A stretch of DNA of 26,889 bases from a virus, in IMG/VR virus record IMGVR_UViG_3300006793_000222, positions 1 to 26,889 of that record, one strand, 5' to 3'. The notes beneath the pieces were generated by a model. The model ran no database searches. It had not been told where the DNA came from and saw nothing but the letters and a program-made list of their open reading frames with translations. Shown here piece by piece: positions 9,126-26,547 of the stretch (its first letter is position 1; each line of letters starts with the position of its first letter). The position numbers and the translations under genes were made by a program.

Positions 9126-9133
9126 TATTTATT
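9126..9133 (-). promoter_or_regulatory. Late promoter octamer AATAAATA
   Basis: It overlaps the stop codon of the giant gene (9129-9131) and lies upstream of the fibre ATG at 9104. Predicted +1 is near 9120, giving a 16-nt leader with AGGATAAG as ribosome binding site. It would let fibre expression be set separately from the giant gene. Confidence 0.55.
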
Positions 9134-12100
9134 CCGTTGTAATTACGTCGGCTAAATCCTCAGTTATGAGAGCATCAGTTCCGAGTTCTGTTGTCATTGT
9201 TTCGCCAGGTAGTTCAGCTATTTCTGCTTCACGATCAGCGGCCTGTTCTTTCAAGAACAGTATTTGTTCTGTAGTTCCACCATTGAATCCTGTTCCGTCG
9301 GCGGCTGTTCCTGTTCCTGGATTTTGCCAAGTGTTTGATGTAACAAGAGTTGTTCCTGCTAGAATAGTTCTTACATAAGCATTTCCGACTGTTAGGTTAC
9401 TAGCTAAAGTAACATTTCCAAACCCACTGTTTGGTACTTTCTGTGTTCTGTCGCTACCGTCAACAACACTAGTTCCATTTTGAATCACATTTGTTATTGC
9501 TGTTTGCCAAGTTCCCCGTCTTATCTGACCTATTGCATTGGCAGAGAATATAGCTCTAACATTAGCAGTATCAAATACTGCATTAGCACTAACGTTTGCT
9601 GTAGTTACATAAACATTGCTATCATATCTAATAACAGCAGTATTGCCGTAGGCAGTGTTTGCTGTCCAATTAACTACTTCTGCACTATAGTTTCTCCAGA
9701 AGTGTATCCTTTCTCCATTAATGTATACCACACCTGGATCATTGAGTGCTCGATTAGGAGTAGATAGTACACTAGCATCAGTTACAAAAATTTCAGTATC
9801 GTCTCTGGCAACTTCTTGAGCAGTCGTTGTACTAAAGTTATCAGCGATCCTTAAGAAGTCTGTTGTACCATCTGCATAAGTTTGTATTCTGTAGCCGACT
9901 GTAAGATTAGCGTTTGCATACGTATCAATATTTGCTGTAAATATTTTCATATTCAATGTATCAAATACTATTCCTGGGACTAGCTCTTCTGGAGCATGAC
10001 TCGACCAACGATCAACATACTCACCACCGTCTACATTAATATCTTCTGGCCTACTTCCCAATGCAGTGTCTGTGTAAGTACTACGTATGATAGTATCAAC
10101 AGCATATTGACTAAGAACTTCGTTACCATCTTCATCGTAGTCTACAGCGTCAAACACTGTCGAGTCATATGGATTACTTAAAGAACTTATAAAGTCAACG
10201 GCTGTTGGATATACTGATTTCCACACCCCGTCAACTCTGATATTACCGTTAGTAATTGATGTGTCACTTAACACAAAGTCTGCTGTTGATTTTATAGTAC
10301 CTTGTACTTTAACTGCTGACCATACTTTGGTTACAGATAAATTAGCATCTAGCACAGGGTGTTCAACTTGTGTAGTCAATGCTATAGTACTTGACAATGG
10401 TAAAATACTAACATTAGACCATGTACTAGTATTCGCCGCAAACACATTACTGCTTAGAAGTGTACCACCATTGATAAACAAATTTCCTGTGTCATTGAAA
10501 GTAAAATCGTTGTTCTTAATAAAGTAACCCGATGCAGAACTATCTATATTACCTTGTATTGTTCCGAGAGCATTACCGTACACTGTGGCATTTGCACCAG
10601 TGCTTGGTTGAGTAATATGATCTCCAATGTTAGCAGTGAACACATTATAGTATGGATATATAGCTACGTCACCGTCTACAGTAAACGGATGGCTAGCTAC
10701 AAAGTTTACTAGTACGTCAGCTTCGGGCTGTATGATTATATTACCTGTATGACCAGATACTAAACCGTGACTACCACTAAACGTAATGTTAGCTACAATG
10801 TCTCCACCTATACCTGGTTGTTGGTTAAAGTTTAATCCTTGTACTTGCACTCCAGGATATTCAATACCTGGGATAAGTTGATTTAGATCTTTTGCCTCCA
10901 TATCCGACTGTGGACTATAGTATGCCATGATACGATCGTTAGCATTTTTAAAATCGGCCGCTGGATAAACTGTATAGTTGTCAAGCACAAATGTATCACC
11001 AGTGGTTACATTTGCTGTTACCTGGTAACCAACATTTCCAAAACTAACAATAGTATTAGCTTGGAAGAATGTGTTTGTTTGCCATGGTTGAACTTCTGTA
11101 CTATATGTGATTCTGTCAAACTTTAATGTACTATCAAAAGTTCTTATTTTGTTATTTTTTAATACAGGATAAGCTGTTGCTAGTATTCCTTGCTCTGTTG
11201 ACGTAGTAAATCCAAAGCTAATTGCTGTGTTAGTAAATGCACTAGTATTAGCTGTAGTCATAGTAATTTCTAAATTACCACGATCAATATTTTCTATAAT
11301 AGTATTTGCGGCAAACCCTACATTAGCGGCCATACCAACAAACAATCCAATGGTTGAATTAACAGTATATGTATTTGATTGTATATTTGCGTTACCACCA
11401 ATTACAGTAACATTACTAACAGTTGTTCCGTTGATTGTCACTGTCGGAGTTGATGTGTAGTCTTGCCCTTCGGTCACTACAGTTATTGCAGTTACACTAC
11501 CAGTATCTCCATTTATAGTCGCTGTAGCAGTTGCTTGTATATTACTTCCGCCACCTGATACGGTTACTGTAGGTGCACTAGTGTATCCACTGCCCACATT
11601 GCTTACGATTATACTATCAACAACAAATGTTCTATTATTATACCAGTTTGGATAATCAATATTAACTAGCCCGCCATTGTTAGGAAGATAACCGGTACTC
11701 CATAATTGAGTATCTTTGGTAATGTACTCTCCGTTTGGTGATCGGAAAGTTTCTAGGTCTTGATCATAGTAAGGTGCAAGATCAAAATCAGTTATGTCAC
11801 CGCCGAACGGATCGTCACTGGTATAGTTTGTTAAATATTCTCGTATTTTAGTTCTATATGGTTTTACTTCTTCTATATAATTTTCATAATAAGTTAAATT
11901 ATCTTTAACGTAGTTAGCTGGTTGTCCTAGTGTTCGAAGATATTGTGTTACACTAATGAAACTAGATTTGAATATCCAATCTACACTTAGTTGTTCAGTG
12001 AATAGGTAGTTAACCATTACAAAGAATAGTTCATTGAATTGTCCTTGTAACTCTCCAATGAATATATCATTCCTTAATGCATTTATAATATATCTTGTTT

Positions 12101-15100
12101 CAATATTTGGACTTTGGTCAAGTCGACCATCATCATATCCTTGGTTACTGTAACCAATTTCATTATCAGCAAAATCGCCTAAACTTTCATTTAACTGTAT
12201 TGTTCCGTTTTCAATACCAACAACTTCATAACTACCTGTACTAGTTACAGTAAGCAGGTTCCACCCACCTCCTGTGCTTGTTGTTACTTTAACCTTAATT
12301 TCGTCACCGACACTTGCTGACAATCTTAGTGCATCAGGTAAAGTATCAACCACATACTCAATAACTTCGTTACTGTCATAACCTTCGGCGTACCAATCGA
12401 CATACGACCAATACAGACTAGTTTTATAACTTTGTATTCTCAGTAATTCCCAGGACTTATCACTTGCAAGCTCGTATAAAGTCCATAGATTATCCTCTGC
12501 TGTATTTTGTTTTACTAAAACTTTATACCCGGTGGATAAGATATCTGTGTTTATATATGGTAACTCTATTTCAGTTTCGATAGCAAGATCATATTCATTT
12601 AATTTAATATTAGGTTCAGCCTCTTGACTAAGCATATTAGTTAAATCATACTGTCTTGCTATAGGTTTGGTAATTAGTATAGCATTAACATGAGTAATTA
12701 AATCACTCATTGCTTTTAATCTATCAATGAATATTGTTTGTCTTGGGCGAACATCAATACCGTATCTATCAGCTGGGCTTAGTGTAGGATCTGGTACTGA
12801 TCTTCCATCAGCATCTATACCTGCAAGACTGTCTATCATTTTATTAACAATTTTGTTTGGTATTAAATCAACTGGATTTCCTTCTTGTATCAATTCGTAT
12901 TCAGAATGTATAAGACTTGAATTCTTTAGTATGTCATAATCAAGATGTAATATAGTATTTGAAGCTGACAGATATTCAGACACATTATAAACTATAATAC
13001 TATTGTTTTGTATAATTGCTGAATAACCAATGCCTTGTGATTTAGGATTTGTTATGTAGTCTGATATCGTTTGTATACTTAAATTTCTATTTTCGTCAAT
13101 ACCTGTTATGCTAGTTTTACCAATGACCCAGAAGTAATAGACACTTTCGATAATGTTTGTTGTAGGATTAACTTTAGATATCTCAACATAGTTACTATCG
13201 TCAGCATATTTAGGTACACCATCAAATCCAGCAGTAACATATGCACTAGGTAATACTGAACTCTCTACCCACTCGCATATTTCTACTATACTCCCTGGGA
13301 ATAATCTACCCCAGTTAATACTACGATATTCTAAACTTCCTTGTTCATAATCAATAAAGCGTACTTGTTCTAAGTTCCACCAAACTTGATTTACTTGTGC
13401 TTCGTTCCAATTAAAGGCTGAGTTAGCATTTTCTCCGCGATTATAAACAGCAGGGTCATATTCTGTCTTAAAGCTAATTTCTTGATCTGCTACACCTAAT
13501 ATTTTACCTTTTGCTGGATCAATAAATTCTAAATTAGTTAATATAGTATCAGTTAGCTTACTGTATAAGAATATTCTATTAACGGTGTCAACATCAACTC
13601 TAGGCTGTTGATATCTAATTAAATTCCAACCTCTTGTCATTTCTGGATCAGAGAATATGTAAACACTGCCTGTGTCTAGTCCTTGTGTGTCATCTCCGGG
13701 AGCAGACACTATAATCTCTCCGCCCATAACATCTATGGCGGCGCCAAATCTATCACCCGAATTTAATCTATCTGTTGGAGTTTGCACATTACCATCTAGG
13801 TCTGGAACTATCAATTGCTGAGCAAATGCATACCTGCCTGGATTTTCTACTTCGTCTCTAGGATCATCATATAACTCATAAACGTAAGTACTGCCACTAC
13901 CAACGATATCATCTGTAAAGATTGTACTATCATCATCTAATGTTAATGTATCAGTATCTATTGTAAGTGGACTCTTAGTAGTACCACGTTCACTACCAAT
14001 CACTAACATGTAAGCATTTTGTGCCAGCACCACTTTGTTACCAAAGTATTCACCTTGGGTGTTATATGGACTTACTATGATTTGCATAAATGCAAACACT
14101 TTGATGCCAGCATCCACTAACACACCGTTATCACTTCCTGACAGTATCCTTAATAAATTCTTGGCCACAGTTGAGTCTGTGTCTAATTTAAGATATCCAT
14201 CTTCGTTACTAGCTACTAGTCCAACAATTTCGGCTGAATTAATATCGTTAACTAAACTGTCTAGTGTTGTTCCTGTAACTGTTATTTCAAAGTTATCTAA
14301 GCGTATAGTGTCGCCTGGTGTAAATGTTGGATTTTGTATATCACCGGTATTAGTTCCATACAGTCTGCCTCTATTATGGAATTTCCATACTGCACCTGTA
14401 TTGTAAGCTGTTCCATTATTATAATATGGTGCCCCTACATAAATCGCACAGTTGTTTGAACAAATAGTTAAATCAGTACCAAATGCCGCACCTTCTTGTA
14501 TTGCATCAGTTCCACCTACTAGGCTATCAATACCTGTTAACTCTTCTAGTAAATTAAATTCGTTTGTTTCAATATAAACAACTTTGCCTATAGCAGGAGG
14601 GTTAATAAATGTTAATGTGGTTCCACCAATAGTGGGCGGAATATAATCTTCAACAGTGACCCCGTCAATTTGTACTTTGTGTACCAAATCAATAGTTCCT
14701 GTTGTTGTATACGTTATTGATCCTGTAGTCTTAAATGCTTCAATTACTCTATCGTATACGTAAACAGCACCAGCACCTTGGATCCATTCGCCATCTACAA
14801 AAACATTAGCATCTGGAGCGCCAACACCAAGTTGGGCACCATCGAGACTTGAGTCCATAGAAGAACCAAAGGAACTACCTGTTTCACCTTGTATAGTATT
14901 TGATAATACATAGTAAGGTGCTTGTGTTATTACATAAGTATCCTGTGATAAGTTACCAGTGAACGTAATTACATTTCCACTAAGTGTATAATCTAGTTCT
15001 GGAATAAATGTTCTGTTTGAATTCCTAACCAATAATGAATCAGCTTGTCCGGACACTGTTGGGGTAAATGATGTTCTAATATTACTAATATTAGATACAC

Positions 15101-18100
15101 TGTAAAGATTGGTCGCATATAGACCTGAGTCAATCGAATTAATACTTACATTTGCATTGGCATTTCCGGTGTCAAATCCAACGCCAGGGGCAACTACAAT
15201 ATTTGAGCCCCAGCTTGATCCAACAAATGTATTGCCAGACGAAATAACTTCAGCATTTGCACCTGTTATAGGATATGTAATTCTATCTCCTGGGAACGTT
15301 GCTGTGTTTGAATTAAGTCTTAAAGTGTTGCGATTATTAATCGACACCGTATCTTTTTCTTTTGATACGTGTGTGTTTAATCCGTAAACATATACTCTGT
15401 CATTGCCTGGAGCACCTACATATAGCCAATCACCATATTCACTTAGTGATACACTAGATCCAAATCTATCTCCTGTGGCTGTAAGATTTTTACTCCATAT
15501 TATTTGTGGCTCTTCAAACTCTGTAGTTCCGGCTGGTCTATTATAAAGATAAACTAGTCCTATATTCCCGTAACTGCCCGGGGCACCAACAACAACTTTT
15601 TCAACTGCTTGGTCAACACAGCTACCATATTCTCTTGTGGTCACTTGTGCGTTACCAGATTTGGGTATTAAAGAAGTGGCTACTAGTAAATTACCTGCAT
15701 AGTCTTTATTGAAGACATTAACTTTTCCGGTTACTTCTTCAGTACCACCGCTATAGTAAGGTGTAGTGTTTGCAAAAGGACTTCCTACTGTTGCTAATAA
15801 TCCGTCATAGCTGAGTTTAACTGCTGTACCAAAGCCATCATTAGCTTTATATTCTGAACTAGACTTTAATAATGTTTCTTTATAATTCCAAGGATTGGTT
15901 TTTTCGTATACTTTCCATCCGCCACTGGCTACATCATACGGTTGTCCTTGTTCTACTGTGGTTGCGGCATCTTCATCAATCCATATCTTATCACCTGTGC
16001 GCCACCCTTGCTTAGGGTTGGTTAATCCAAAGATTCTTGCATCTTCCATAAATCGGAATCTTAGACTATCTAATACAAACAGTATTCCAAGACCATTGGC
16101 TGTGTTTAAGGTATCTAAATTTTCACTGTTGCCAAGATACTGGCATGTAACTCTCTTAAGATCAGGTACACTATATACTTGATAGAAGCCATCAAATTTA
16201 TCATCAAACCCACGTATTAAAAATATGTTGTCTTTAATGAGACCGTGCTGTTCGCTTGATGTCCAAGTAACATATCCATCTAAAGCATTAGTTAATGTTG
16301 TTACTTGATTATCTGATTCAGATACTCTATAGACATTCCAGTTACCAGTGAAGTCTTTAGCAGTCCATATTGAATACCCTGTTCCTATATCATCAGCTAA
16401 TACGTTTAGTGTTGAGTAATCACTAATATCATATACCGTCGCATCTATGTCATCTATATTAACGTAACCAGCAGTTAATATATCGTTGTCGTAATTACTT
16501 GCACTGTCTCTGTTTAATGCAATATTGCCGTTGAATTTAGCACCTTGCTGATCAAAGAATTTATAAAGTTGACTTTGATTAAATACTGTTTCTCCGTTTC
16601 CGTCGTTTGCATCATTGGTGCCAACAAATTTTATAGTTGCAGGATTAACTGATATTGCTTTTTCATCAAGAGCTATTTCAACAAAAGGATTACTTGCTAT
16701 CGCTCCGTATTCTCCTGTACGTATAGCCCACTCTTCATAATAACTAATTTTACTACTCAGTGTATCAAAATCTGCTTTAGACAGTGCATCAATTGCATTC
16801 TTTGTGCCTTTTTGTCCGATGTAACCTTTATAAAATTCAATCTGTGTTGTTTCGGTTAGTCCTAGATCGTCTAGATACTGTCTTGGTTTATACCCAATCA
16901 ATCCGTGACTGTATGCCATTTGATCTTTATCTTTAATCTCGCCATAGCTGTCGTAATAACTTTGTGATTCAACCGCGGTGGTTGAAAAGTTACTAAGTAG
17001 TCCTGATTTAATTTCTGATTTGGATATTTGTTTCCATGTTGTAAAATTAAACTCTGTTGCTCCTGGAATATTTGTTAGAGCTACGTAGTATTGATCTTTA
17101 AATTCTATTAGTTGACCCTTAAGATAATCAACACCAACTTGCCATTCTGGCACTAGTTCGTCGTTATAAACAAATCCTGGAGCATACAAACTACCGTCCC
17201 AAAGATTAGTTTTCTGCCCAATCAACTTTAATCTAAATTGTCTATTACCTAGCTCAGGTCGATATATTACATCATTGAATACTGTGGTATTATCAAATAC
17301 TAGTACATGTTCGTACTGTACCAAACTTAGTTGAACCAATGCTAGCATATTGTCATCTTGCAGAGTAACACTAAAGTTATTGCTAGTACGAGTAATCTGA
17401 TAGCCAGTATCTTTTACTATGTTAAAGTTTTGATCTACAACCTTACTTCCGTATTGGCTATCCTCGATCCCGTCAACTATGTTATTTTCTGTAACTACTT
17501 TTATACTATTTGTAACAGGACTTAAAACTAATATGCTACCTTCTCTCCAACCTTGTTGGGCCCAGAATAAGAATTCTTTGACACTCAATTTCCAGTCGCG
17601 TGTTTCTGCGAGATCACCATCTCTGTCATTGAATGTAAATCCTTGTGCTTTTAGATATCGTTCATAACCTATTAGGAAGTCGACTACTTGCTGTTGTGTT
17701 TTAAATTCATATCCGTACGGAACAGTCAGCTTTACATTTTGATAATCATTGAATATCGTTCCTGACTCATCTTGCACGCTGATACTATACGAATTATTGT
17801 TGCTGACACTTGGAATAATAGTAAAATAAGGAACATGTAAATCATATCCTCTAACAGTAAATCCATTTGTTGCTTTTTCGACTATAACGGCTGAGTAAGT
17901 TATTTTGTCAGTTGGTGCTGACTTATTCAATAGTAGATCATAATTTTCATCTGGAATCATGATACTAGTACTTGTGCTCGACGGTGAGCTCTGTTCTGCT
18001 AAAATCTGTAAATACTTCTTATCACTGAAACCTGCCATCTTGTATGCTAATTTTACATTATAGTTTTCTAGCATTGGATTAATTTTAACTGATGGTGTTA

Positions 18101-21100
18101 TCCCGTGACTTCTTAAATAGTCAGCTATCCAGTTCAGATATCCAGCACCTCTATTAATAACAGTTGGTATCAATGGGTCTATGTATCCATTGTATACAAT
18201 CTCATCCTGTTGCACATGATGTTTGTCAGTTAGTGTTAAGTACTGGTTGACATCAGTATTGTAACGAATATTATAAGTGTCAATGAATCTACCAAAGTAA
18301 ACTGCAGGCTTCAATACTGCCATAGCCTGCTGTAATACATACGGGTAATCACTACTACTTCTCCACGCCCATTCAGTAGGTCCTAGTTGCCCTATCGACC
18401 AACTAGTTGCGGCATCAGTTGAGTTTGATGCTAGAGCTACTACTTTTTCTGGGCTTAATAAGTATCCGTTTTGGTCCACTGGAATAATTTGGCTTAGTCC
18501 TGGACGTACATAATTTGTGTCTATACCAACACCCGATCCCATGTCAACCAATGACCGTGGTCCGCCATATATTTTACCAGCTTCTAGATCATCCCATAAC
18601 AGTTTGTTTCCGCCTGTATATGGGCCTACACCATAACGTTCCTCCCACCAATCAGGTTGCGATGAAAATCCTAACATTTCCCATGGGCGTTGATGCGGGT
18701 ATATCGTGTCATAATAGTACTGATAAATTGCACGCCAGCTACCAGGTAAATATTCTCGATCTAGTCGATCAACAAATCTTGAGTAGTTCCACGAAAACGG
18801 ATCATTACTTAAAAATGTATTGTTGGTTGAGAAATCAACTCTGTTCTTTCCTACCCATGTCATGAAGCCCGTTGCCACTGCGTTCCATACTTCAGAATAT
18901 GTGTAATCGCTATCTCTAAACTTACCAGGTAAAGCTGTTAGTAATTCAGTCTGGTACGTGTTTGTATCAGGTATTTTAATATTGTTGTATATACGTTTTT
19001 CTAATTCAAGAAGAAGATTATCTCTATAGTCATCAAATGCTGGAGTAATACTGCCATCATGCCCTCTAATTACTGTTATCGCACTTCTATAAGTATCATC
19101 TAAGATTAGTTCAGGTTCAAACTTTGGATACGTTCCTACTTTACTTGGAGTTTCTGGAATATAACATCCGTCAGTGTTTGCATATTCAACTATTGTAATA
19201 ATATCATCGACTGCAAATGTCACATAGTTCGAATCAAAATCTACTGCTGGTCTTGTAGTATCAAACGAATAGTCTCTTCCTAGTATTAGTTGCGTTCCGT
19301 TAAGGTATACCAATACTGCTTGGTTACTTAATGTTGTGCTTGAAAATATACTAGTAATTTCGTAACTTAGTACTAATGGATCAAACACTTTATATGTTAT
19401 TGTTTCTCGCAACGTTCCGGTTGGAACCATGTCACTATAATGCCACGGAGTTGAAACATTTTTATTAAGATTTATTTGTGCTATGATTGTGTCAACACTA
19501 GCAACAGCATCGGCTGAGTCAACTCCAGGAAGTGATACTGCTAGTTCAAGGAACTTGTTTTTAAATTTTGCGTACTCTCTTTGTGCGAATTGTATAGAAT
19601 CAATGAAGTTTGCTTTTTCGTCAACTAAGAATAGCTCAGCATAAGGTATTGGTGCACTGTGTTGAAGTATACTACCGCCTTGGCCTTTAATTGCAAGATC
19701 TCTCAAATTTGATTTTCCAAGTATGTCGCCTACTAGTGCTGTACTATTTTGTCCAAGAGCCACAACATGGTTTCTAACCTGCCCAAGAGTTAATGTCGTT
19801 ATGTCTGTGTTCTGTGCATTTAGATCTAAATTCAAAGGAACTTGATAGTATGCTTGTTCACTGACCTGTTCACTGTACACTAATACATTTATAATATCAC
19901 CTACAGCCAATGTAGCTGACACAGTTATTCTATTTGTAGCACTAATGGACCAATGTGTTTGTTTTAATATCTTTTGATTTTGATAAACTTTAACGTAAGG
20001 TACAGTGTCTGTAAATCCATGAGTATCTTGTTGTTTAGGGGTAATGTCTAATGCAAAAGGATTATCAGTAGTGGCTGTATATTCGAACTCAAATACCTGA
20101 TACTGTCTACTAGGTTCATTGACTGTTTGCCAGGTATTTTTAGGTTTGGTTGTTCTGTCAGTTTGTATGTTCTGCAGATAACCGGTGTTTACATTAACTT
20201 TTTTAGTTTCTAATCCAACCACATAATTAAATATATCAGTGTTGAAATAATTAGCAAAGAGTATGTCGCCTTGACTACTAAAACTTCTGTAGTTTAATGG
20301 GAATCCTAATATCTTGTCATTGGTTCCTGTAGTTCCTCTGTCGTACCCAAATAGTTTTGTTCCTACAAAACTACTACGTGGGTAGTAATCAAGATTACTT
20401 AAACTTTTGCCTGCAGTATCATAAACATCAAACAAAGGATCTTGTTGTGTACCTGTTTTTTGTTGTGCTAGTTTCCATTCAGTTCCGTTATACCAGTAAG
20501 AATGCCCTTTAGATGCACCTAGCCCAACTACGACTGAATCCCATTCTTGACCATCACCATCATCGGCTTTTGTTAATTTGATATGGAATGTGCCTTCTGG
20601 AACTCCTTCTGCATCAACTTCATATTGAACTAGATTAAGATTATATATTTTATTTCTTACTAAAGGATCATTATCATTGGCAAATAAAACTCTCATGCCG
20701 TCAAACAATGTAACTCCAAAAGCAGTTGTTAATACTTTTCCTTCTAGTTCTATAAAAGCATCTGTGATTTGAGTATCTACTATGTCGACGTGCCTTTTGC
20801 CAATACGACCGTGATTGAATAACTGCAAGTCGCCTTCAAACTGTACTATCGGACGCTGAGCACGTAAGTCTTGTGAAAGAACTAATACCTCGTTGTTATA
20901 AGTTGCTGAAGCTTCAATGATTGCACTATGTACCCAGCGATTACTACGTGACCATGCATTTAAATCAAGTGCGTCTCTTTTTATAGTGATGTAATCTGGG
21001 AATATAGTATCTGCAAATGCATCATACACCAATGTGGCTGATTGTATTCCAGTACCTGTAACTACCTGACCTTTTTCAACTGCGGATATTGAATCAAGTG

Positions 21101-22706
21101 TTGTTATTTTTGTTGCACCGATAGCTATATCAGTGTTTACTTCAATGGAATTATCACCAACAGTGATTACAGTACCTGCAGTAATTTCTGCTGTTGTTGC
21201 TTTAGTAAGCATTATCCTTTGTATTGGATAATTAGTAGCTATTTCGTCGTTGTATGTTTCAGGAGTTACTAACAGTGTTTCATCAACAAGTCTAATTCCT
21301 TCACCAACATTTTCTACATAGTATGTTTTTTCCTGATACGCTGTAGGAGTAACGTCACTGTCGAATTTAATTTTTAGTCCTGAAGTAAATTCTACTCCAT
21401 TGGGACTAGTATATGTATTCTCTCCTAAAATATCGGTGTCGACGTCAATGGTAAAATTATTAAAGTCTACAATTTTAATTTTAGCGTAGATATCTGCCCT
21501 ATCACCATCCTGTATGTATAAAGTATCTAGTATACTGCTGATAACCGGAACTGGTTCAAGAAACTCAGTGAACTCTTTATAAAATTCTTTGTTTACAAAA
21601 TTTATACCAGACTTAATGTAAACTTTATTGTCGAATGGAATAACTGTTGTTGGGAATATATTAATAAGTTTGTCAGATCCGCTGGCAATCAATTGAATCT
21701 GCCATACGCCATATCTACTACCTTGAGGAACTGTTTCACCAAAATCAAACTCAACTGACTCGCCGCTGTTTTCGTATGCTACGGTCCAAGCATCCTCTAT
21801 ATTAGTTAGTGTGTCTTGTAATACAAATACCGCTGTCTTACCATCTAATTGCCCAGCTAGTCCAGCAAACTGTGGATACTCTAACAAGAAATCACTTAGT
21901 AATCTATTTTGTACTTTACTGAATGGTAACGGTAGTGCATAGTCAACTGTTGCTATCGTATTTTGTGAAAGGAATCTATCTTGTGCATCTGCTTGTGGCA
22001 CAGTAAATGTTACTGTACCTGTGGTAGCACCATTATTTTCTACACCTAATACATCTCTACTAGAGATAGTTGGTGTAACATTAACTAGTCCGTCTATACC
22101 TAGTTCTGTTTGTATCCAAAAACCAGCTGATTGATCTACTGCGAACGTATATGTGCCTCCTCTGGCTAATACCAATGTATTATTTTGTTCTCCAGATGAA
22201 GTAAAATCATATTGATTTTGGTTATCGTTACGACTAACTGTATAATCTTTAATTAATTCAACACCAGTTGTGTTTACTTGTACCGTACTCGGCCCATTAG
22301 GTAACCAGTAATACTGACCAAAGTTTACAAACTTGTCAAATGACACTTGTGGGTCAAAACTATAGTATTCACTAGCAAACAATCTACTTTGGTCTTCGGT
22401 ATATCCGCCGTAGTATTTGACCTTATTAAGAAAATCTAAATAACTAGCAAAGAATGTTGTATTACCTTCGTCATCTTTTATTACTGTAGTTGGTTCTAAC
22501 TGATAGTCTTGGCGTAATGTTGTTTCTTCTGTGATGTAGCTATCGCCTTTCTTAAAAGTTGGTGCAAATTGTCTACCAATATAACCATAAAGGTCTGTGA
22601 GGCTCGGCTCACTGACTAATTGGTCCACTGTGGCATTCAGGAACTTCTCGTTAACGTCAGTCCTAAATACTCCAGGTAGTAAATTTATACTTTTTCTTGC
22701 GGCCAT
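9129..22706 (-). CDS. Giant 4525-residue baseplate-type virion protein with an FG-GAP beta-propeller
   Basis: One uninterrupted frame of 13.6 kb directly after gp6, where T4 has gp7 (about 1030 residues). The N-terminus (INLLPGVFRTDVNEKFLNATVDQL, then RQFAPTFKKGDSYI and YYWLPNGP within the first 150 residues) is typical of large virion proteins of marine myoviruses. A conserved-looking core near 18540-18740 includes LPGSWRAIYQYYYDTIYP and RPWEMLGF. Residues about 2289-3019 hold seven FG-GAP-like blades. After them come QVWWNLEQVRFIDYEQGSL (near 13360), EQLSVDWIFKSSFISV (near 11990) and EEVKPYRTKIREYL. Near 11425-11605 are two GSGYTSAPTVTV-type repeats, and the C-terminus is acidic. There is no signal peptide. 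It probably replaces gp7 and neighbours as a peripheral wedge and fibre-docking protein. Coding is certain; the gp7 equivalence is inference from position. Confidence 0.88.
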   Translation of the reverse strand: MAARKSINLLPGVFRTDVNEKFLNATVDQLVSEPSLTDLYGYIGRQFAPTFKKGDSYITEETTLRQDYQLEPTTVIKDDEGNTTFFASYLDFLNKVKYYGGYTEDQSRLFASEYYSFDPQVSFDKFVNFGQYYWLPNGPSTVQVNTTGVELIKDYTVSRNDNQNQYDFTSSGEQNNTLVLARGGTYTFAVDQSAGFWIQTELGIDGLVNVTPTISSRDVLGVENNGATTGTVTFTVPQADAQDRFLSQNTIATVDYALPLPFSKVQNRLLSDFLLEYPQFAGLAGQLDGKTAVFVLQDTLTNIEDAWTVAYENSGESVEFDFGETVPQGSRYGVWQIQLIASGSDKLINIFPTTVIPFDNKVYIKSGINFVNKEFYKEFTEFLEPVPVISSILDTLYIQDGDRADIYAKIKIVDFNNFTIDVDTDILGENTYTSPNGVEFTSGLKIKFDSDVTPTAYQEKTYYVENVGEGIRLVDETLLVTPETYNDEIATNYPIQRIMLTKATTAEITAGTVITVGDNSIEVNTDIAIGATKITTLDSISAVEKGQVVTGTGIQSATLVYDAFADTIFPDYITIKRDALDLNAWSRSNRWVHSAIIEASATYNNEVLVLSQDLRAQRPIVQFEGDLQLFNHGRIGKRHVDIVDTQITDAFIELEGKVLTTAFGVTLFDGMRVLFANDNDPLVRNKIYNLNLVQYEVDAEGVPEGTFHIKLTKADDGDGQEWDSVVVGLGASKGHSYWYNGTEWKLAQQKTGTQQDPLFDVYDTAGKSLSNLDYYPRSSFVGTKLFGYDRGTTGTNDKILGFPLNYRSFSSQGDILFANYFNTDIFNYVVGLETKKVNVNTGYLQNIQTDRTTKPKNTWQTVNEPSRQYQVFEFEYTATTDNPFALDITPKQQDTHGFTDTVPYVKVYQNQKILKQTHWSISATNRITVSATLAVGDIINVLVYSEQVSEQAYYQVPLNLDLNAQNTDITTLTLGQVRNHVVALGQNSTALVGDILGKSNLRDLAIKGQGGSILQHSAPIPYAELFLVDEKANFIDSIQFAQREYAKFKNKFLELAVSLPGVDSADAVASVDTIIAQINLNKNVSTPWHYSDMVPTGTLRETITYKVFDPLVLSYEITSIFSSTTLSNQAVLVYLNGTQLILGRDYSFDTTRPAVDFDSNYVTFAVDDIITIVEYANTDGCYIPETPSKVGTYPKFEPELILDDTYRSAITVIRGHDGSITPAFDDYRDNLLLELEKRIYNNIKIPDTNTYQTELLTALPGKFRDSDYTYSEVWNAVATGFMTWVGKNRVDFSTNNTFLSNDPFSWNYSRFVDRLDREYLPGSWRAIYQYYYDTIYPHQRPWEMLGFSSQPDWWEERYGVGPYTGGNKLLWDDLEAGKIYGGPRSLVDMGSGVGIDTNYVRPGLSQIIPVDQNGYLLSPEKVVALASNSTDAATSWSIGQLGPTEWAWRSSSDYPYVLQQAMAVLKPAVYFGRFIDTYNIRYNTDVNQYLTLTDKHHVQQDEIVYNGYIDPLIPTVINRGAGYLNWIADYLRSHGITPSVKINPMLENYNVKLAYKMAGFSDKKYLQILAEQSSPSSTSTSIMIPDENYDLLLNKSAPTDKITYSAVIVEKATNGFTVRGYDLHVPYFTIIPSVSNNNSYSISVQDESGTIFNDYQNVKLTVPYGYEFKTQQQVVDFLIGYERYLKAQGFTFNDRDGDLAETRDWKLSVKEFLFWAQQGWREGSILVLSPVTNSIKVVTENNIVDGIEDSQYGSKVVDQNFNIVKDTGYQITRTSNNFSVTLQDDNMLALVQLSLVQYEHVLVFDNTTVFNDVIYRPELGNRQFRLKLIGQKTNLWDGSLYAPGFVYNDELVPEWQVGVDYLKGQLIEFKDQYYVALTNIPGATEFNFTTWKQISKSEIKSGLLSNFSTTAVESQSYYDSYGEIKDKDQMAYSHGLIGYKPRQYLDDLGLTETTQIEFYKGYIGQKGTKNAIDALSKADFDTLSSKISYYEEWAIRTGEYGAIASNPFVEIALDEKAISVNPATIKFVGTNDANDGNGETVFNQSQLYKFFDQQGAKFNGNIALNRDSASNYDNDILTAGYVNIDDIDATVYDISDYSTLNVLADDIGTGYSIWTAKDFTGNWNVYRVSESDNQVTTLTNALDGYVTWTSSEQHGLIKDNIFLIRGFDDKFDGFYQVYSVPDLKRVTCQYLGNSENLDTLNTANGLGILFVLDSLRFRFMEDARIFGLTNPKQGWRTGDKIWIDEDAATTVEQGQPYDVASGGWKVYEKTNPWNYKETLLKSSSEYKANDGFGTAVKLSYDGLLATVGSPFANTTPYYSGGTEEVTGKVNVFNKDYAGNLLVATSLIPKSGNAQVTTREYGSCVDQAVEKVVVGAPGSYGNIGLVYLYNRPAGTTEFEEPQIIWSKNLTATGDRFGSSVSLSEYGDWLYVGAPGNDRVYVYGLNTHVSKEKDTVSINNRNTLRLNSNTATFPGDRITYPITGANAEVISSGNTFVGSSWGSNIVVAPGVGFDTGNANANVSINSIDSGLYATNLYSVSNISNIRTSFTPTVSGQADSLLVRNSNRTFIPELDYTLSGNVITFTGNLSQDTYVITQAPYYVLSNTIQGETGSSFGSSMDSSLDGAQLGVGAPDANVFVDGEWIQGAGAVYVYDRVIEAFKTTGSITYTTTGTIDLVHKVQIDGVTVEDYIPPTIGGTTLTFINPPAIGKVVYIETNEFNLLEELTGIDSLVGGTDAIQEGAAFGTDLTICSNNCAIYVGAPYYNNGTAYNTGAVWKFHNRGRLYGTNTGDIQNPTFTPGDTIRLDNFEITVTGTTLDSLVNDINSAEIVGLVASNEDGYLKLDTDSTVAKNLLRILSGSDNGVLVDAGIKVFAFMQIIVSPYNTQGEYFGNKVVLAQNAYMLVIGSERGTTKSPLTIDTDTLTLDDDSTIFTDDIVGSGSTYVYELYDDPRDEVENPGRYAFAQQLIVPDLDGNVQTPTDRLNSGDRFGAAIDVMGGEIIVSAPGDDTQGLDTGSVYIFSDPEMTRGWNLIRYQQPRVDVDTVNRIFLYSKLTDTILTNLEFIDPAKGKILGVADQEISFKTEYDPAVYNRGENANSAFNWNEAQVNQVWWNLEQVRFIDYEQGSLEYRSINWGRLFPGSIVEICEWVESSVLPSAYVTAGFDGVPKYADDSNYVEISKVNPTTNIIESVYYFWVIGKTSITGIDENRNLSIQTISDYITNPKSQGIGYSAIIQNNSIIVYNVSEYLSASNTILHLDYDILKNSSLIHSEYELIQEGNPVDLIPNKIVNKMIDSLAGIDADGRSVPDPTLSPADRYGIDVRPRQTIFIDRLKAMSDLITHVNAILITKPIARQYDLTNMLSQEAEPNIKLNEYDLAIETEIELPYINTDILSTGYKVLVKQNTAEDNLWTLYELASDKSWELLRIQSYKTSLYWSYVDWYAEGYDSNEVIEYVVDTLPDALRLSASVGDEIKVKVTTSTGGGWNLLTVTSTGSYEVVGIENGTIQLNESLGDFADNEIGYSNQGYDDGRLDQSPNIETRYIINALRNDIFIGELQGQFNELFFVMVNYLFTEQLSVDWIFKSSFISVTQYLRTLGQPANYVKDNLTYYENYIEEVKPYRTKIREYLTNYTSDDPFGGDITDFDLAPYYDQDLETFRSPNGEYITKDTQLWSTGYLPNNGGLVNIDYPNWYNNRTFVVDSIIVSNVGSGYTSAPTVTVSGGGSNIQATATATINGDTGSVTAITVVTEGQDYTSTPTVTINGTTVSNVTVIGGNANIQSNTYTVNSTIGLFVGMAANVGFAANTIIENIDRGNLEITMTTANTSAFTNTAISFGFTTSTEQGILATAYPVLKNNKIRTFDSTLKFDRITYSTEVQPWQTNTFFQANTIVSFGNVGYQVTANVTTGDTFVLDNYTVYPAADFKNANDRIMAYYSPQSDMEAKDLNQLIPGIEYPGVQVQGLNFNQQPGIGGDIVANITFSGSHGLVSGHTGNIIIQPEADVLVNFVASHPFTVDGDVAIYPYYNVFTANIGDHITQPSTGANATVYGNALGTIQGNIDSSASGYFIKNNDFTFNDTGNLFINGGTLLSSNVFAANTSTWSNVSILPLSSTIALTTQVEHPVLDANLSVTKVWSAVKVQGTIKSTADFVLSDTSITNGNIRVDGVWKSVYPTAVDFISSLSNPYDSTVFDAVDYDEDGNEVLSQYAVDTIIRSTYTDTALGSRPEDINVDGGEYVDRWSSHAPEELVPGIVFDTLNMKIFTANIDTYANANLTVGYRIQTYADGTTDFLRIADNFSTTTAQEVARDDTEIFVTDASVLSTPNRALNDPGVVYINGERIHFWRNYSAEVVNWTANTAYGNTAVIRYDSNVYVTTANVSANAVFDTANVRAIFSANAIGQIRRGTWQTAITNVIQNGTSVVDGSDRTQKVPNSGFGNVTLASNLTVGNAYVRTILAGTTLVTSNTWQNPGTGTAADGTGFNGGTTEQILFLKEQAADREAEIAELPGETMTTELGTDALITEDLADVITTE
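11425..11605 (-). repeat. GSGYTSAPTV-type repeat pair within the giant protein
   Basis: Two copies of a beta-rich unit, GSGYTSAPTVTVSGGG and GQDYTSTPTVTINGTT, are separated by an ATATATINGDTGSVTAITV linker. This motif recurs in bacterial and phage surface or virion proteins as short tandem beta units. It lies about 830 residues before the C-terminus of the giant protein. Confidence 0.75.
13650..15842 (-). repeat. Seven FG-GAP-like blades (integrin-alpha-type propeller) inside the giant protein
   Basis: Seven segments share the pattern (G/D)xxFGxxxx...xxxVGAPxx...GxVYVY. Approximate positions in reading order: 15842-15700 (DGFGTAVKL, VGSPF), 15640-15533 (YGSCVDQA, VVGAPG), 15480-15380 (GDRFGSSVSL, YVGAPG), 14885-14740 (SSFGSSMD, GVGAPD), 14495-14365 (AAFGTDLT, YVGAPY), 14055-13860 (EYFGNKVV, VIGSER) and 13762-13650 (GDRFGAAI, VSAPGD). 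Insertions of roughly 60-150 residues lie between blades 3-4, 4-5 and 5-6. FG-GAP repeats form seven-bladed propellers in integrin alpha chains. Repeat count and motifs are seen; the fold is inferred. Confidence 0.82.
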
Positions 22707-22735: not shown

Positions 22736-25700
22736 CTAAGCTGTTACAGTTTGGTTAAGTTGTGCGGCTGTAATAGCTGTAATAATTTGTACATTGTCTA
22801 CTGTTGCGGCACTAACAATTATTTCGTTGTACTCTGCATTTATCTGTAGTAGACTACCAAATGTTTCTGTGGAACTATTCGGAACTATACTTACACTAGC
22901 TATATTTGGTGCTAGTACTGAATGTAGATACGCACTCAGTTCACTGAAGTAAAATGTTTCTCCGAAGTCCCAATTATTTAAATCAAAGTAAGTATTGATA
23001 GCCGCGATCACACTGGTCTTTACATCATTGTCGCTGACAACCACACCGTAACTCTTTACTACTTTAAATGTTGCTTGCAATGATTCTTCTGCTTTACTGC
23101 CAAAGATTGGTTTGAACTTAGCAGGATTGTATATCACTGTGTCTGACACTGTTTTATAATTTTCTAAAGTACTATAATCTGTACCTAACACTTCTGGTGT
23201 AGGTGCTACAGGCTCTGTCACAGTGTCTGTTGTGTCTTGTACCCAAGCAAGGTACTCTGTGGCATATGATTTAGTTAGTATATACAAATCCACAATATTA
23301 TTTGGGCTCGGATCAATACGTCTATTGTTTGGTGAGCTATGTCTGTACTGGAAATATATGTCCTGACGTCCTACTTTGGAAGTGTAACCAGTAACTACAG
23401 ACAGTGTATAAACTGCTCCGGTTATAGTTAGTTGATAGAATGTGTTAGTACTCGGAACATAAAACAGTTGTCCAGTTTGGAAAAGAGTTTTTGCAGTTTC
23501 AAGAGCAACAAGGCTGTCATATGTACTAACCACCAAGCTATTGCTTACTGGAGTTTGTATAACAAAATTATCATAGCCAAAAGTATTTTGGAAATAGACA
23601 TATTTTTGATTTGTTAGTGTAGTAGGGCTTACCAGCGTTTCAAATAATTCTGGATTGTCTGGAACACCATCGTCGTTAGCATCAGGATATGTAACTAATA
23701 CTTTGTTAGGATTACTGTATCCATCTGTTTCGACTACATTATCATATATGTGCCATTGATAATCTAATGCCAATGCACTAGCATCATCTGGGTTTGAATT
23801 CATTTTTAATACATTAATTTGATCCCGTATAACAAAACCTGTACGTGTATCAAATATCTTAACTTGGTCATCAAAATAAAAGTTAGTTTCTTTAACACTC
23901 TCAAAAACATATTGCAGTCCTCTATAATAAACTGAATATGTTTGTCCTACTGTTTGGAATCTGATTATCCACGAACTGTCAAGTCCTAAACTACTGGTAT
24001 TACCTGCGTTTGCTAGGCTAAAGTCTCCAGCGTTCATGTTTTCAGGAGTAATTATAGTCCATTCTGATGTAAGCACATCATATCGTAATCCAAAGTCTTT
24101 AAATGCTTCTATGTATTCAACCATGCTAGTAGTTACAGCAGTTGTCAACGTGTTATTAAACACTGGAAATACTCTTACAGCTTCAGCACCTGTTGGAACT
24201 ATCTGATTTAATGTTATTGGTCCTGATCCATTCTCTAAATTGCCTTCACCAGCATTGGTCCCGTCTGCTAGTACTTCGATAATTTCAGCATAGATAAAAT
24301 ACTTGTCTCCTGACTGACTTGGTGTTCCTGTTTGTATTGTATTCTGTGCGTCAAAATACTTTCCACTACCTGCAGAGAATTTAACAATAGCACTTTGTTT
24401 AATATATTTCTTGCCATCACTGACATAATGTCCTACCTGTAATATATTTCCAGCCGCATCATAAAAATATCCTGTAATCCCTGCATCATCTAATGACTTA
24501 TTCCAGAAAGTATCTGAAACATTAATTTGTGCATAGTTACTATAGAAGAACTGTAGCGTATCTTTTTTAGTAAGTATCGGTGTAAGTTGATTAGTAATTA
24601 CATTGTAGATATCATTAGTAGTAACATAACTAAAACTAAATGTGTCAAGGGTTTCATCTTTATAAAGAATTCCATCCTGACAGAATATGTTTGTGCTAGA
24701 ATATTTTCCAGTGCTGTCAATCACGTCTAAGTATCTTGAAATGCCACTGGATGTTCTATTAACTGCTTTAACTTTTAACACTGAACTAAACAATGTGTAC
24801 GGTAGTATATTATAGTCTTCGCCTGTTACCATACGATCTTGTGTGTAGTACTGTTGTGGTGCTTTTTGTCTTACTTCTTCAACAGTTTCTCTGGCTGTTG
24901 CATTAGTTACTGTGTATTGTAGACTAGCACGTATATTAATTGTTTCTGTTCTTCCATCTTTTGAAACATAGTTTATAGGTATAACTATTCCACGCATTTC
25001 GTCCGGTGACACTTTGTAATTTAAACCGTTGCTAGTTCTATAATACAATCTAAATCTACCTTGTGGCATTGTTGCAAAACTTCCGTCGCCAAATATTAAA
25101 TCAACTTGATCGCCAGCACGTGTGTTTACTTGATAAATGTTTTTGTCAGTACTAGTATTATAAATGATATTTGTAGCACCAACACTAGGTACTGCTGTCC
25201 ATAACTGATCAAAGTTACCATTTGCATCTAGTTTATATAACCAAACATCTGAATTATTAATATTGTCAACATTCAGACTATACACTCTATTAGGAACACT
25301 TTCAGAGAATGTGATGTCTATGCTTTGTAAGTCACCTTGCTTAAAGTACGTGAAGTATCCAGTGTTGTTACTGCCGTTTCCTAAATTATCATTCCTATAT
25401 AATAAGTTAAAACTGCTGTTAGGTTGTGGCGCAACTTCATATATAAAAGTTTTTCCAGCTGATGTTGGAGATATCATTTCAAAAGATGTTTGTGATCCTT
25501 CAATGGCAGTACTAAATGGGTACACTGCTGTTAAACTTGGTACTTGGTTGATCTGATATTCTTCGTTTAATATATTATTAATTGTTTGGCTGTTACTTGG
25601 CTTGCCCACTGACTGTGTGGTATTAAGACTAGCATTAACAACAGCATTAAATTGTTCTTGCCAATTGTCATTTGCACTGTCTGTCCAATTAATCACTAAC

Positions 25701-26116
25701 CCTGCAAGATTAAGTCCGTTTGAATCAAATACAGTTTCTGTAGTTGACACTGAATCTACTTTAAGGAATCCACTGGCTGGAATATTGCGTTTAGGATTGT
25801 ATGATATTAGGCGTGCTAACTTTAATACAGAGTCGCGCCTCTGTGCAGTGTCAATGAAATTTTCACGAGCATTTAAGTCGCCTCTAAATGCAAGACTTTG
25901 CCCTAAGAAACTTAATAGATCAATTAATGCGATAAATTCACTTGATTCAATAAAGTCATTAAAGTCCTCCGGATAATATAAGCGGAGATAGTCTACCATG
26001 CTTTTTCTCAGAGTCTCATAGTCATAGCTTTGAAAGTCAGCATTGCGGAAAGTTTGATATAGTTTAGTCCAGTCTTCTGCGACTAGTAAACTGCTTTGTC
26101 TTGTGGTAATTGCCAT
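22736..26116 (-). CDS. 6: Baseplate wedge protein gp6 homologue (baseplate J-like)
   Basis: This encodes 1126 residues, much longer than T4 gp6 (about 660) but in the style of marine T4-like phages. The N-terminal 115 residues are diagnostic: FRNADFQSYDYETLRKSMVD, YYPEDFNDFIESSEFIALID, FRGDLNARENFIDTAQRRDS and LISYNPKRNIPASGFL. Around 335-440 are VDLIFGDGSFATMPQGRFRL and ARETVEEVRQKAPQ followed by RMVTGEDYNIL, the Baseplate_J-type signature. The C-terminal part (about 1000-1126) with VKTSVIAAINTYFDLNNWDFG and FYFSELSAYLHSV matches the end of J/gp6 proteins. In T4, gp6 dimers form the inner ring linking the wedges. The ATG has an AGGGA site in a predicted 16-nt leader, and the next gene follows 29 nt after the stop. 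Confidence 0.94.
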   Translation of the reverse strand: MAITTRQSSLLVAEDWTKLYQTFRNADFQSYDYETLRKSMVDYLRLYYPEDFNDFIESSEFIALIDLLSFLGQSLAFRGDLNARENFIDTAQRRDSVLKLARLISYNPKRNIPASGFLKVDSVSTTETVFDSNGLNLAGLVINWTDSANDNWQEQFNAVVNASLNTTQSVGKPSNSQTINNILNEEYQINQVPSLTAVYPFSTAIEGSQTSFEMISPTSAGKTFIYEVAPQPNSSFNLLYRNDNLGNGSNNTGYFTYFKQGDLQSIDITFSESVPNRVYSLNVDNINNSDVWLYKLDANGNFDQLWTAVPSVGATNIIYNTSTDKNIYQVNTRAGDQVDLIFGDGSFATMPQGRFRLYYRTSNGLNYKVSPDEMRGIVIPINYVSKDGRTETINIRASLQYTVTNATARETVEEVRQKAPQQYYTQDRMVTGEDYNILPYTLFSSVLKVKAVNRTSSGISRYLDVIDSTGKYSSTNIFCQDGILYKDETLDTFSFSYVTTNDIYNVITNQLTPILTKKDTLQFFYSNYAQINVSDTFWNKSLDDAGITGYFYDAAGNILQVGHYVSDGKKYIKQSAIVKFSAGSGKYFDAQNTIQTGTPSQSGDKYFIYAEIIEVLADGTNAGEGNLENGSGPITLNQIVPTGAEAVRVFPVFNNTLTTAVTTSMVEYIEAFKDFGLRYDVLTSEWTIITPENMNAGDFSLANAGNTSSLGLDSSWIIRFQTVGQTYSVYYRGLQYVFESVKETNFYFDDQVKIFDTRTGFVIRDQINVLKMNSNPDDASALALDYQWHIYDNVVETDGYSNPNKVLVTYPDANDDGVPDNPELFETLVSPTTLTNQKYVYFQNTFGYDNFVIQTPVSNSLVVSTYDSLVALETAKTLFQTGQLFYVPSTNTFYQLTITGAVYTLSVVTGYTSKVGRQDIYFQYRHSSPNNRRIDPSPNNIVDLYILTKSYATEYLAWVQDTTDTVTEPVAPTPEVLGTDYSTLENYKTVSDTVIYNPAKFKPIFGSKAEESLQATFKVVKSYGVVVSDNDVKTSVIAAINTYFDLNNWDFGETFYFSELSAYLHSVLAPNIASVSIVPNSSTETFGSLLQINAEYNEIIVSAATVDNVQIITAITAAQLNQTVTA

Positions 26117-26169: not shown

Positions 26170-26547
26170 TTATATAGCTGTAATTGTTTGAGTTTGATTG
26201 TCGAACTGTAAGTTCATAACATTAGTTTGATCTGTTAATACGTAACGTAATTGTAGTTCAACTTGTATTCCTTGATCGTATTCTGTTACTATCACATTGT
26301 CAATACTGAGTCTAGGATCATACCCAGCGATTGTTTTGATATCTGTAACTATTACACTCTTTAGATCTTCTGTTAGAGGTTCGTGTACCACGTTCCAAAT
26401 AATTGTACCGAAATCAGGATTCATTAATTTTTCACCTTTACGGATATAAAAATTATTAATTAGGTCCTGTTTTACTAATTCAAAATCCGTGAGACGGAAT
26501 TTGCGAGTACGCCCTACTGTTGAAAATCCTCTGTACATAATAGCCAT
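26170..26547 (-). CDS. 25: Baseplate wedge protein gp25 homologue
   Basis: This encodes 125 residues, close to T4 gp25 (132). The GPW_gp25 family pattern is visible: a helix VKQDLINNFYIRKGEKLMNP, then DFGTIIWNVVHEPLTED (45-61) carrying the family's E-P motif, then a helical segment and a beta-hairpin end (IQVELQLRYVLTDQTNVMNLQF). gp25 binds gp6 and gp53 in the T4 wedge core and starts sheath assembly; its neighbour here is gp6, as in cyanophages. The ATG is 5 nt from a late octamer, and an AGGA lies 11 nt upstream, so translation can be served either from a readthrough transcript with a Shine-Dalgarno sequence or from a leaderless one. Confidence 0.94.
   Translation of the reverse strand: MAIMYRGFSTVGRTRKFRLTDFELVKQDLINNFYIRKGEKLMNPDFGTIIWNVVHEPLTEDLKSVIVTDIKTIAGYDPRLSIDNVIVTEYDQGIQVELQLRYVLTDQTNVMNLQFDNQTQTITAI

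What the first reader, a model, noticed from the sequence alone, without database searches (positions are those of the whole stretch)
13650..15842. A seven-bladed integrin-alpha-like FG-GAP propeller embedded in a phage baseplate giant
The sequence shows exactly seven FG...VGAP...VYVY units in the middle of the 4525-residue protein, with large insertions between blades 3-4, 4-5 and 5-6. Seven is the integrin number. FG-GAP propellers are known mostly from cell-adhesion proteins, so a complete one in a tail baseplate protein may be a host-surface or fibre-docking platform, with the insertions as variable loops.
Basis: partly seen in the sequence, partly recalled or inferred. Interest (0 to 1): 0.72.

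Follow-up and report, generated by a model that had tools for sequence, protein, structure and literature searches.

The report
Integrin-like propeller in phage baseplate giant
A giant protein encoded beside the tail-baseplate genes of an uncultured phage carries a seven-bladed propeller of the kind found in animal adhesion receptors, plugged into one small hairpin that in some related phages is empty or holds other domains, so it is probably an optional, exchangeable part used to touch the host cell.

Summary
The 4525-residue protein (9129-22706, minus) follows gp25-like and gp6-like wedge genes and has exactly seven FG-GAP units at residues 2285-3021 (Pfam FG-GAP_2, E 1.3e-18). The AlphaFold model (pLDDT 85) superposes on integrin alpha propellers (Z 24.6, 2.5 A, 356 residues); other seven-bladed propellers score nearly as well, but a sequence profile also finds integrins (E 2.1e-12). 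Integrin calcium loops are absent.

New is where it sits: residues 2270-3026 fill the turn of a beta-hairpin. Of 145 fetched relatives with both flanks, 129 have the propeller (109 with exactly seven detected units) and 16 do not: slot nearly empty (6), YHYH domain (3), another short segment (7). Empty sites nest inside propeller clades, which suggests clean loss. Insertions in blades 3, 4 and 5 vary in length; only blade 3's evolves faster, under purifying selection, so 'hypervariable' is not supported.

Most likely role: an optional, exchangeable host-contact module. Fold and slot rest on sequence and models; function is inferred. PhiKZ gp131C is a known seven-bladed baseplate propeller, so this is a new variant of a known kind.

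The parts
9129..22706 (-). 4525-aa giant protein, virion structural protein family (phrog_10938), in the gene position after gp6
   Evidence: homologues in cultured jumbo phages
13629..15899 (-). inserted seven-bladed FG-GAP propeller, residues 2270-3026
15900..15917 (-). first strand of the carrier hairpin (WKVYEK, residues 2264-2269)
   Evidence: strand in model; matches the empty-site hairpin of L083; Trp invariant in 42 rows
13611..13628 (-). second strand of the carrier hairpin (WNLIRY, residues 3027-3032)
   Evidence: Trp invariant in 42 rows
15870..15887 (-). N-terminal strand (residues 2274-2279), inferred to close blade 7
   Evidence: strand 75-80 of the model; alignments to integrins start at model residue 72 and integrin residue 1
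15705..15854 (-). FG-GAP unit 1 (residues 2285-2334)
15534..15644 (-). FG-GAP unit 2 (residues 2355-2391)
15384..15476 (-). FG-GAP unit 3 (residues 2411-2441)
14916..15374 (-). insertion in blade 3 (residues 2445-2597); fastest evolving part of the domain
14748..14891 (-). FG-GAP unit 4 (residues 2606-2653)
14583..14729 (-). insertion in blade 4 (residues 2660-2708)
14370..14501 (-). FG-GAP unit 5 (residues 2736-2779)
14097..14372 (-). insertion in blade 5 (residues 2779-2870); looks like a Flagellin_IN motif by eye (3 of the 42 members of A3 match that Pfam family, place not shown)
13869..14057 (-). FG-GAP unit 6 with conserved insertion (residues 2884-2946; insertion 13896-13991)
   Evidence: invariant D718, D725, G739 of alignment A3. 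Weakest unit: i-E 0.8 with the first HMM, 3.9e-5 with the second
13644..13766 (-). FG-GAP unit 7 (residues 2981-3021)
22736..26116 (-). gp6-like baseplate wedge protein
   Evidence: phrog_10646 and phrog_219
26170..26547 (-). gp25-like baseplate wedge protein (name recalled; PHROG says baseplate wedge subunit)
   Evidence: phrog_43
17031..17171 (-). small module (residues 1846-1892, placed by eye) like one in solved Agrobacterium phage Milano and 7-7-1 entries
   Evidence: seen in the L083 model (27% identity, 1.0 A over 45 residues, Z 7.6); weak, Z under 8

Best explanation
A closed seven-bladed FG-GAP (integrin-alpha-type) propeller is inserted as a unit into the turn of one beta-hairpin of a giant baseplate-region protein. 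Both ends of the insert meet at that hairpin, so it can be gained or lost without disturbing the carrier. It most likely works as a rigid, outward-facing contact platform, in as many copies as the carrier has (number not known): the carrier holds it, and the decorations on blades 3, 4 and 5 contact host surface or a partner during adsorption. Shown by sequence and model: the fold, the seven units, the insertion point, absence in some relatives, other domains in the same slot. Inferred: position at the outside of the baseplate, contact with the host.
For: Fold: pLDDT 85, pTM 0.84; integrin alpha propellers are the top Foldseek hits (E 2.1e-11) and top second-look hits, Z 24.6, 2.5 A over 356 residues; by profile, the 27 PDB sequences with E below 0.005 are all integrin alpha chains. 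Slot: the L083 model has strands 597-601 and 606-611 with a four-residue turn where the window has 757 residues. Dispensable and replaceable: 16 of 145 loci lack it; on a tree of 142 rows slot state needs 8 changes, shuffled mean 22.7, and empty sites nest in propeller clades twice. Replacements: YHYH (Pfam E 2.9e-29 and 6.1e-31 in the 2 of 3 loci scanned); a GDSL hydrolase just upstream in 5 of 5 scanned of the 7 other-segment loci. Virion: the carrier's relative CBB_236, which has no propeller by length, is listed among mass-spectrometry structural proteins (PMC5259590 passages); PA5oct's relative bears the record note ESI-MS/MS. Precedent: PhiKZ gp131C, a seven-bladed propeller at the baseplate periphery (passage in PMC4901313).
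Against: No binding data, and no virion proteome of a propeller-bearing member of this family. Position on the baseplate is unknown: no significant match to T4 gp7 (E 0.17-0.2), and the carrier flank of L083 matched no PDB entry at E 0.001. Conserved blade number and purifying selection fit a structural role as well. Presence in 129 of 145 loci shows that it is rarely lost among the loci fetched. WD40 and other seven-bladed propellers superpose almost as well as integrins (Z 23.8 and 23.6), and single-sequence searches of the PDB found nothing.
Confidence: 0.55

Rival explanations
1. The propeller is an internal docking platform: it binds another virion protein (fibre, pin or neighbouring wedge) rather than the host. 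The conserved blade-6 insertion would be the docking site.
For: The blade-6 insertion has invariant residues in 42 rows and full occupancy; three proteins downstream share PHROG matches, one of them a tail fibre family; propellers often act as protein-binding platforms (established knowledge).
Against: The propeller is absent or replaced in 16 of 145 loci whose flanks still align, though loci were chosen for having both flanks. The replacements are YHYH and, close by, GDSL domains, which I do not recall as docking adaptors.
Confidence: 0.27
2. A decoration without a specific ligand, as proposed for some Ig-like domains on phage surfaces (recalled): weak, general stickiness to glycans, or mere filling.
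For: Loss back to a short hairpin; similar domains occur in giant-virus proteins.
Against: Seven-unit architecture and FG-GAP motifs are held over a deep family under purifying selection (two comparisons).
Confidence: 0.13
3. A catalytic propeller (glycosidase-like) acting on host surface polymer.
For: Phage tail propellers can be enzymes (K1F endosialidase, passage in PMC10607447); slot alternatives include a predicted hydrolase (YHYH, passage in PMC7824862).
Against: The nearest folds and all significant profile matches are integrin alpha chains, not enzymes. The twelve invariant columns are Gly and Trp apart from two Asp in the blade-6 insertion; a role for those two is not excluded.
Confidence: 0.05

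Closest known systems
Integrin alpha-subunit beta-propeller (alpha-M, alpha-4, alpha-V and others)
   Same: Seven FG-GAP blades, superposition over residues 2271-3030, significant profile match
   Different: No calcium-binding loops: FG to GAP is only 11-13 residues and no DxDxDG motif in the window domain; not part of a membrane receptor; insertions in blades 3, 4, 5, whereas the integrin I domain sits between blades 2 and 3 (recalled)
PhiKZ gp131C seven-bladed propeller (PDB 4GBF)
   Same: Seven-bladed propeller at the baseplate periphery of a Pseudomonas myophage; speculated receptor binding (passage in PMC4901313)
   Different: C-terminal domain of a different protein; whether its blades are FG-GAP was not tested here
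Staphylococcus phage phi11 Gp45 receptor-binding protein
   Same: Propeller platform in a baseplate receptor-binding protein (passages in PMC4901313)
   Different: Five blades, trimeric stem-platform-tower protein
Cyanophage FG-GAP proteins (S-TIM5 F417_gp054, S-MbCM6 7022-aa giant, S-SCSM2R 'TolB')
   Same: Eight, six and seven FG-GAP unit hits with the window-derived HMM, some weak or partial; the S-TIM5 protein is annotated virion structural
   Different: Different carrier proteins; a separate gene in S-TIM5
PHROG 10938 giants of 121Q, GAP32, XaC1, PA5oct, Atu_ph07, Phosso, SCTP-2 and Vibrio 2.275.O
   Same: Homologous carrier: pieces matching within window residues 1-2200 and 3027-3680
   Different: No FG-GAP unit by HMM in 8 of 8; a looser regex gave one lone match each in SCTP-2 and the Vibrio phage, outside the slot

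Membership tests
FG-GAP_2 repeat family (Pfam PF14312) | Profile match above curated cut-off | tested here: met
   67.3 bits against cut-off 23
Integrin-alpha-type propeller (fold) | Closed propeller of seven four-stranded blades | tested here: met
   model pLDDT 85; Z 24.6, 2.5 A over 356 residues; no coordinates were available to inspect closure directly
Integrin-alpha-type propeller (fold) | Sequence relation to integrin alpha chains | tested here: met
   profile A3 against PDB, best E 2.1e-12, integrin alpha-4; single-sequence phmmer found nothing
Integrin alpha subunit | Calcium-binding DxDxDG loops in the later blades (feature recalled) | tested here: not met
   no such motif in the window domain; FG-to-GAP spacing 11-13 residues in all seven units; 6 of 61 middle segments scanned hold a looser form, not placed on the blades
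Integrin alpha subunit | Thigh/calf domains, transmembrane anchor, beta-subunit partner (recalled) | not tested
   gene context is a phage baseplate cluster
T4 gp7 baseplate wedge initiator | Gene directly after gp6 | tested here: met
T4 gp7 baseplate wedge initiator | Sequence homology | tested here: inconclusive
   hhalign of a 23-row profile with T4 gp7 alone: E 0.17-0.2
PHROG 10938 virion structural giant | Profile match | tested here: met
   E 0, 1200 bits
PhiKZ gp131 propeller | Sequence or structure similarity | not tested
   4GBF was not compared on its own
VrlC (said to stand in for gp7 in pelagi- and cyanomyophages, passage in PMC7029224) | Sequence homology | not tested
   no VrlC sequence was fetched

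The most novel reading that the evidence does not exclude
One beta-turn of this jumbo-phage baseplate giant is a general socket for exchangeable host-contact heads: an integrin-type propeller in most lineages seen, a YHYH domain or another short segment (with a GDSL hydrolase next door) in others, almost nothing in a few. Phages would change host range or entry chemistry by swapping the head in this wedge-region protein, in addition to the fibres.
Probability: 0.35. Interest if true: 0.72.

Novelty: new variant of a known kind. Interest (0 to 1): 0.55.

Why it matters
If right, a large uncultured group of T4-like phages uses an adhesion fold best known from animal integrins at its baseplate, and a single defined hairpin marks where such heads are gained and lost. 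That gives a precise, testable place to look for host-contact determinants in phages whose hosts are unknown. The window's domain matches no PHROG family at E 0.1, and a compact relative matches only one of unknown function, weakly, so phage-specific annotation would overlook it, although Pfam sees the repeat.

Tried and rejected
Near relatives among phage records: none for the window DNA, none for the domain by tblastn at 1e-5; at E up to 10 only weak matches, E 0.1 to 7; the compact relative L081 matched one Phosso gene, E 9e-5. PDB by single sequence: no match for the whole protein at E 1 or the domain at E 10. Homology to T4 gp7: not found, so 'gp7-like' is by gene position only. Carrier against cyanophage giants: hhalign with S-MbCM6, S-CAM8 and S-SCSM2R proteins matched the blades, the GxGY repeats near residue 3700 and short stretches; homology of the carriers is not shown. 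Empty-site flank of L083 (pLDDT 76.7, pTM 0.47): no PDB match at E 0.001, best a phage endosialidase at 1.7e-3; the second look gave Z up to 10.6 over 76 residues for a small beta-barrel also in ubiquitin E1, endosialidases and tail proteins, too common to mean much. SCTP-2's slot looked LamG-like by eye, but Pfam found nothing. Hypervariability: rejected as stated (dS in the L003 comparison is near or past saturation). Recombination: window against L001 gives synonymous difference 0.169 in the propeller and 0.100 elsewhere; one pair only. Host from genome contigs: seven distant loci in MAGs, one of which, L213, has seven unit hits (one weak), two (L209, L211) have three scattered hits each, and four none; no host inferred.

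Literature: 'FG-GAP' with phage and baseplate 0 papers; with bacteriophage 9, with cyanophage 1, with phage and tail 7, seen as listings, none titled or abstracted on a phage propeller. Propeller searches: 20 of 50 listed; 2; 12 of 63 listed; 4; S-TIM5, 5 of 9 listed; YHYH, 2. Only open-licence PMC papers are held, so absence in print is not shown. PMC5259590, PMC7824862, PMC7029224, PMC4901313 and PMC10607447 were seen as passages only; PhiKZ gp131C is known here only through PMC4901313.

Limits of the counts. 189 loci had the conserved region; 44 without both flanks were dropped, leaving 145. Unit counts: 16 with none, 14 with six, 109 with seven, 6 with eight; many six-unit cases show one long spacing or a missing end unit, and none was settled one by one. 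An earlier HMM pass over 56 propeller-bearing proteins, with duplicates, counted seven in 32, six in 19, five in 4 and four in 1. The 145 include duplicates (for example L030, L031, L032). Each of the three relative searches returned only the best 80 of nearly 600 candidates, so proportions describe what was fetched. Alignment A3 (window, L001, L003 and 39 relatives) was picked for having the propeller, so '42 of 42 match FG-GAP_2' is not a frequency. A6 used 28 of the 34 stretches listed. The tree is a quick one, with long branches flagged.
Full report
What is there. The window is a 26,889-base virus record. On the minus strand it holds the end of a hub/lysozyme-like gene, a gp25-like and a gp6-like baseplate gene, then a 4525-residue ORF (9129-22706), followed by proteins of 545, 218, 452 and 482 residues; the 482-residue one matches a tail fibre family and shares PHROG matches with the 545- and 452-residue ones. 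The giant matches PHROG 10938, virion structural protein (E 0), and has distant homologues in cultured jumbo phages: 60 records match residues 1-2250 and 59 match residues 3020-4525.

The observation. Seven FG-GAP units lie at residues 2285-3021. A regex gives 7 sites in the whole protein against a shuffled mean of 0.08 and maximum of 3 in 2000 shuffles; a blade HMM made only from L103-L181 finds all seven with i-E of 3.9e-5 or better. The stretches behind that HMM were located with an earlier HMM seeded on the window, so the test is independent in sequences, not in discovery. Pfam FG-GAP_2 agrees.

The fold. AlphaFold on residues 2200-3060 with 41 relatives gave pLDDT 85 and pTM 0.84. Foldseek's best PDB matches are integrin alpha chains (E 2.1e-11); the TM-scores are low (query-normalised 0.15-0.35 in the 50 rows shown), which I put down to the large insertions. 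The second aligner superposes 356 residues on integrin alpha-M at 2.5 A, Z 24.6, model range 72-831, that is residues 2271-3030; a WD40 domain and a highly repetitive propeller score close behind (Z 23.8 and 23.6), so the structure alone says 'seven-bladed propeller' more than 'integrin'. The sequence profile does favour integrins: the 27 PDB sequences with E below 0.005 are all integrin alpha chains, best 2.1e-12; single-sequence searches found nothing. The calcium loops typical of integrins are missing.

The slot. Relatives L083 and L087 read straight through: GWAVYTYNGSTWTRTRQQ in L083 where the window has GGWKVYEK, 757 residues, then WNLIRYQQ. In the L083 model the two strands form a hairpin with a four-residue turn (the model as a whole is weak, pTM 0.47, but this part has pLDDT 84-89). 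In the window model the same two strands flank the propeller, and their tryptophans are invariant in the 42-row alignment.

How common. Three searches of viral contigs, each capped at 80 loci, with L001-L003, gave 189 loci with the conserved region; 145 have both flanks and 44 were dropped. Of the 145, 129 carry six to eight detected units, 109 exactly seven, and 16 none. The 16 are: six nearly empty (L083, L087, L187, L104 with a short turn; L100 and L103 with a short extra stretch); three YHYH loci (L076, L099, L182; Pfam run on the first two; L182 was grouped with L099 because its conserved region is 100% identical); and seven with another short segment (L095, L096, L101, L194, L195, L198, L200). 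In five of those seven Pfam was run and found a GDSL hydrolase, which lies just upstream, at a second site. Middle segments of only 489-494 residues with the propeller occur (L081, L084, L088, L089), against 861 for the same stretch of the window; six or seven units were found in each, so the large insertions are additions to a plain core. One of seven distant loci from MAG contigs, L213, also has seven unit hits, one of them weak.

History. A tree of 142 rows on the carrier's flanks needs 8 changes of slot state against a shuffled mean of 22.7. Rooted on four cultured phages, the propeller is most simply gained once at the base of a 134-row group and lost or replaced three times: in L083/L087/L187 next to L089/L208, in L100/L103/L104 next to L106/L107, and in the YHYH/other-segment group. 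The tree is a quick one with long branches near the root, and change counts by themselves cannot tell gain from loss.

The insertions. By strand order all three large ones follow the third and precede the fourth strand of blades 3, 4 and 5, which in integrin topology, as recalled, puts them on one face. Lengths of the stretches between units vary over the 41 aligned relatives: 14-264, 18-93 and 15-227 residues. Only the blade-3 insertion evolves faster (dN/dS 0.24 and 0.17 against L001 and L003; blades 0.087 and 0.084; dS against L003 is near saturation). Blade 6 has a conserved insertion between its second and third strand with invariant Asp and Gly residues, a candidate docking point.

Function. 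A domain joined through one turn, absent or replaced in some relatives, and alternating with domains that others link to tail-associated entry or host recognition (YHYH: predicted metal-dependent hydrolase, passage in PMC7824862; host recognition, passage in PMC7029224), is most simply a host-contact module. Virion presence of the carrier family is supported for CBB_236 (listed in the mass-spectrometry table of PMC5259590 with the values 21 and 7.72, which I take for peptides and per cent coverage; column heads not seen) and for PA5oct (record note); PA5oct has no FG-GAP unit and CBB_236 was not scanned, but its match lengths leave no room for one. No direct evidence of binding exists.

Known or new. 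Propellers in phage tails are known: PhiKZ gp131C with seven blades at the baseplate periphery, phi11 Gp45 with five, PRD1 P2 (passages in PMC4901313), K1F endosialidase and T7 nozzle (PMC10607447), and a Kelch propeller protein in CBB virions (PMC5259590). FG-GAP runs also occur in cyanophage and Sinorhizobium phage proteins and, by fold search, in several giant-virus proteins. What appears new is an integrin-type propeller as an exchangeable insert in the wedge-region giant of a large uncultured phage group; the searches that turned up no paper on this were made, limited to open PMC papers.

Noticed in passing
L095, L096, L194, L195, L200: A GDSL-like hydrolase (Pfam PF13472) is inserted in the same giant at a second site just upstream; all five lack the propeller.
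   Followed up: partly
window 11382-11639 (residues 3690-3775): Repeats of the form GxGYxxxPxVxxxGG; similar repeats lie in the middle of the giants of Atu_ph07 (blastp) and Phosso (by eye), and in cyanophage giants.
   Followed up: no
L015 (Sinorhizobium phage Phosso, about 92-94.5 kb): Two neighbouring hypothetical proteins of about 400 residues that each give seven FG-GAP unit hits, several of them weak.
   Followed up: partly
window 3925-5373, 5414-6772, 7467-9104: Three proteins downstream of the giant share PHROG matches; one matches a tail fibre family.
   Followed up: no
residues 2401-2850 of the giant, window against L001: Synonymous divergence is raised in the propeller: 0.169 against 0.100 elsewhere; possible recombination, one pair only.
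   Followed up: partly
L057, L065, L072, L074: Giants of 5709-5834 residues, open at the 3' end of the locus, with a longer middle and roughly 800-900 more residues before the conserved region than most relatives.
   Followed up: no
window 17031-17171: Small module resembling one in the Agrobacterium phage Milano receptor-binding complex (weak); one relative's giant is annotated chitin-binding type-3.
   Followed up: no
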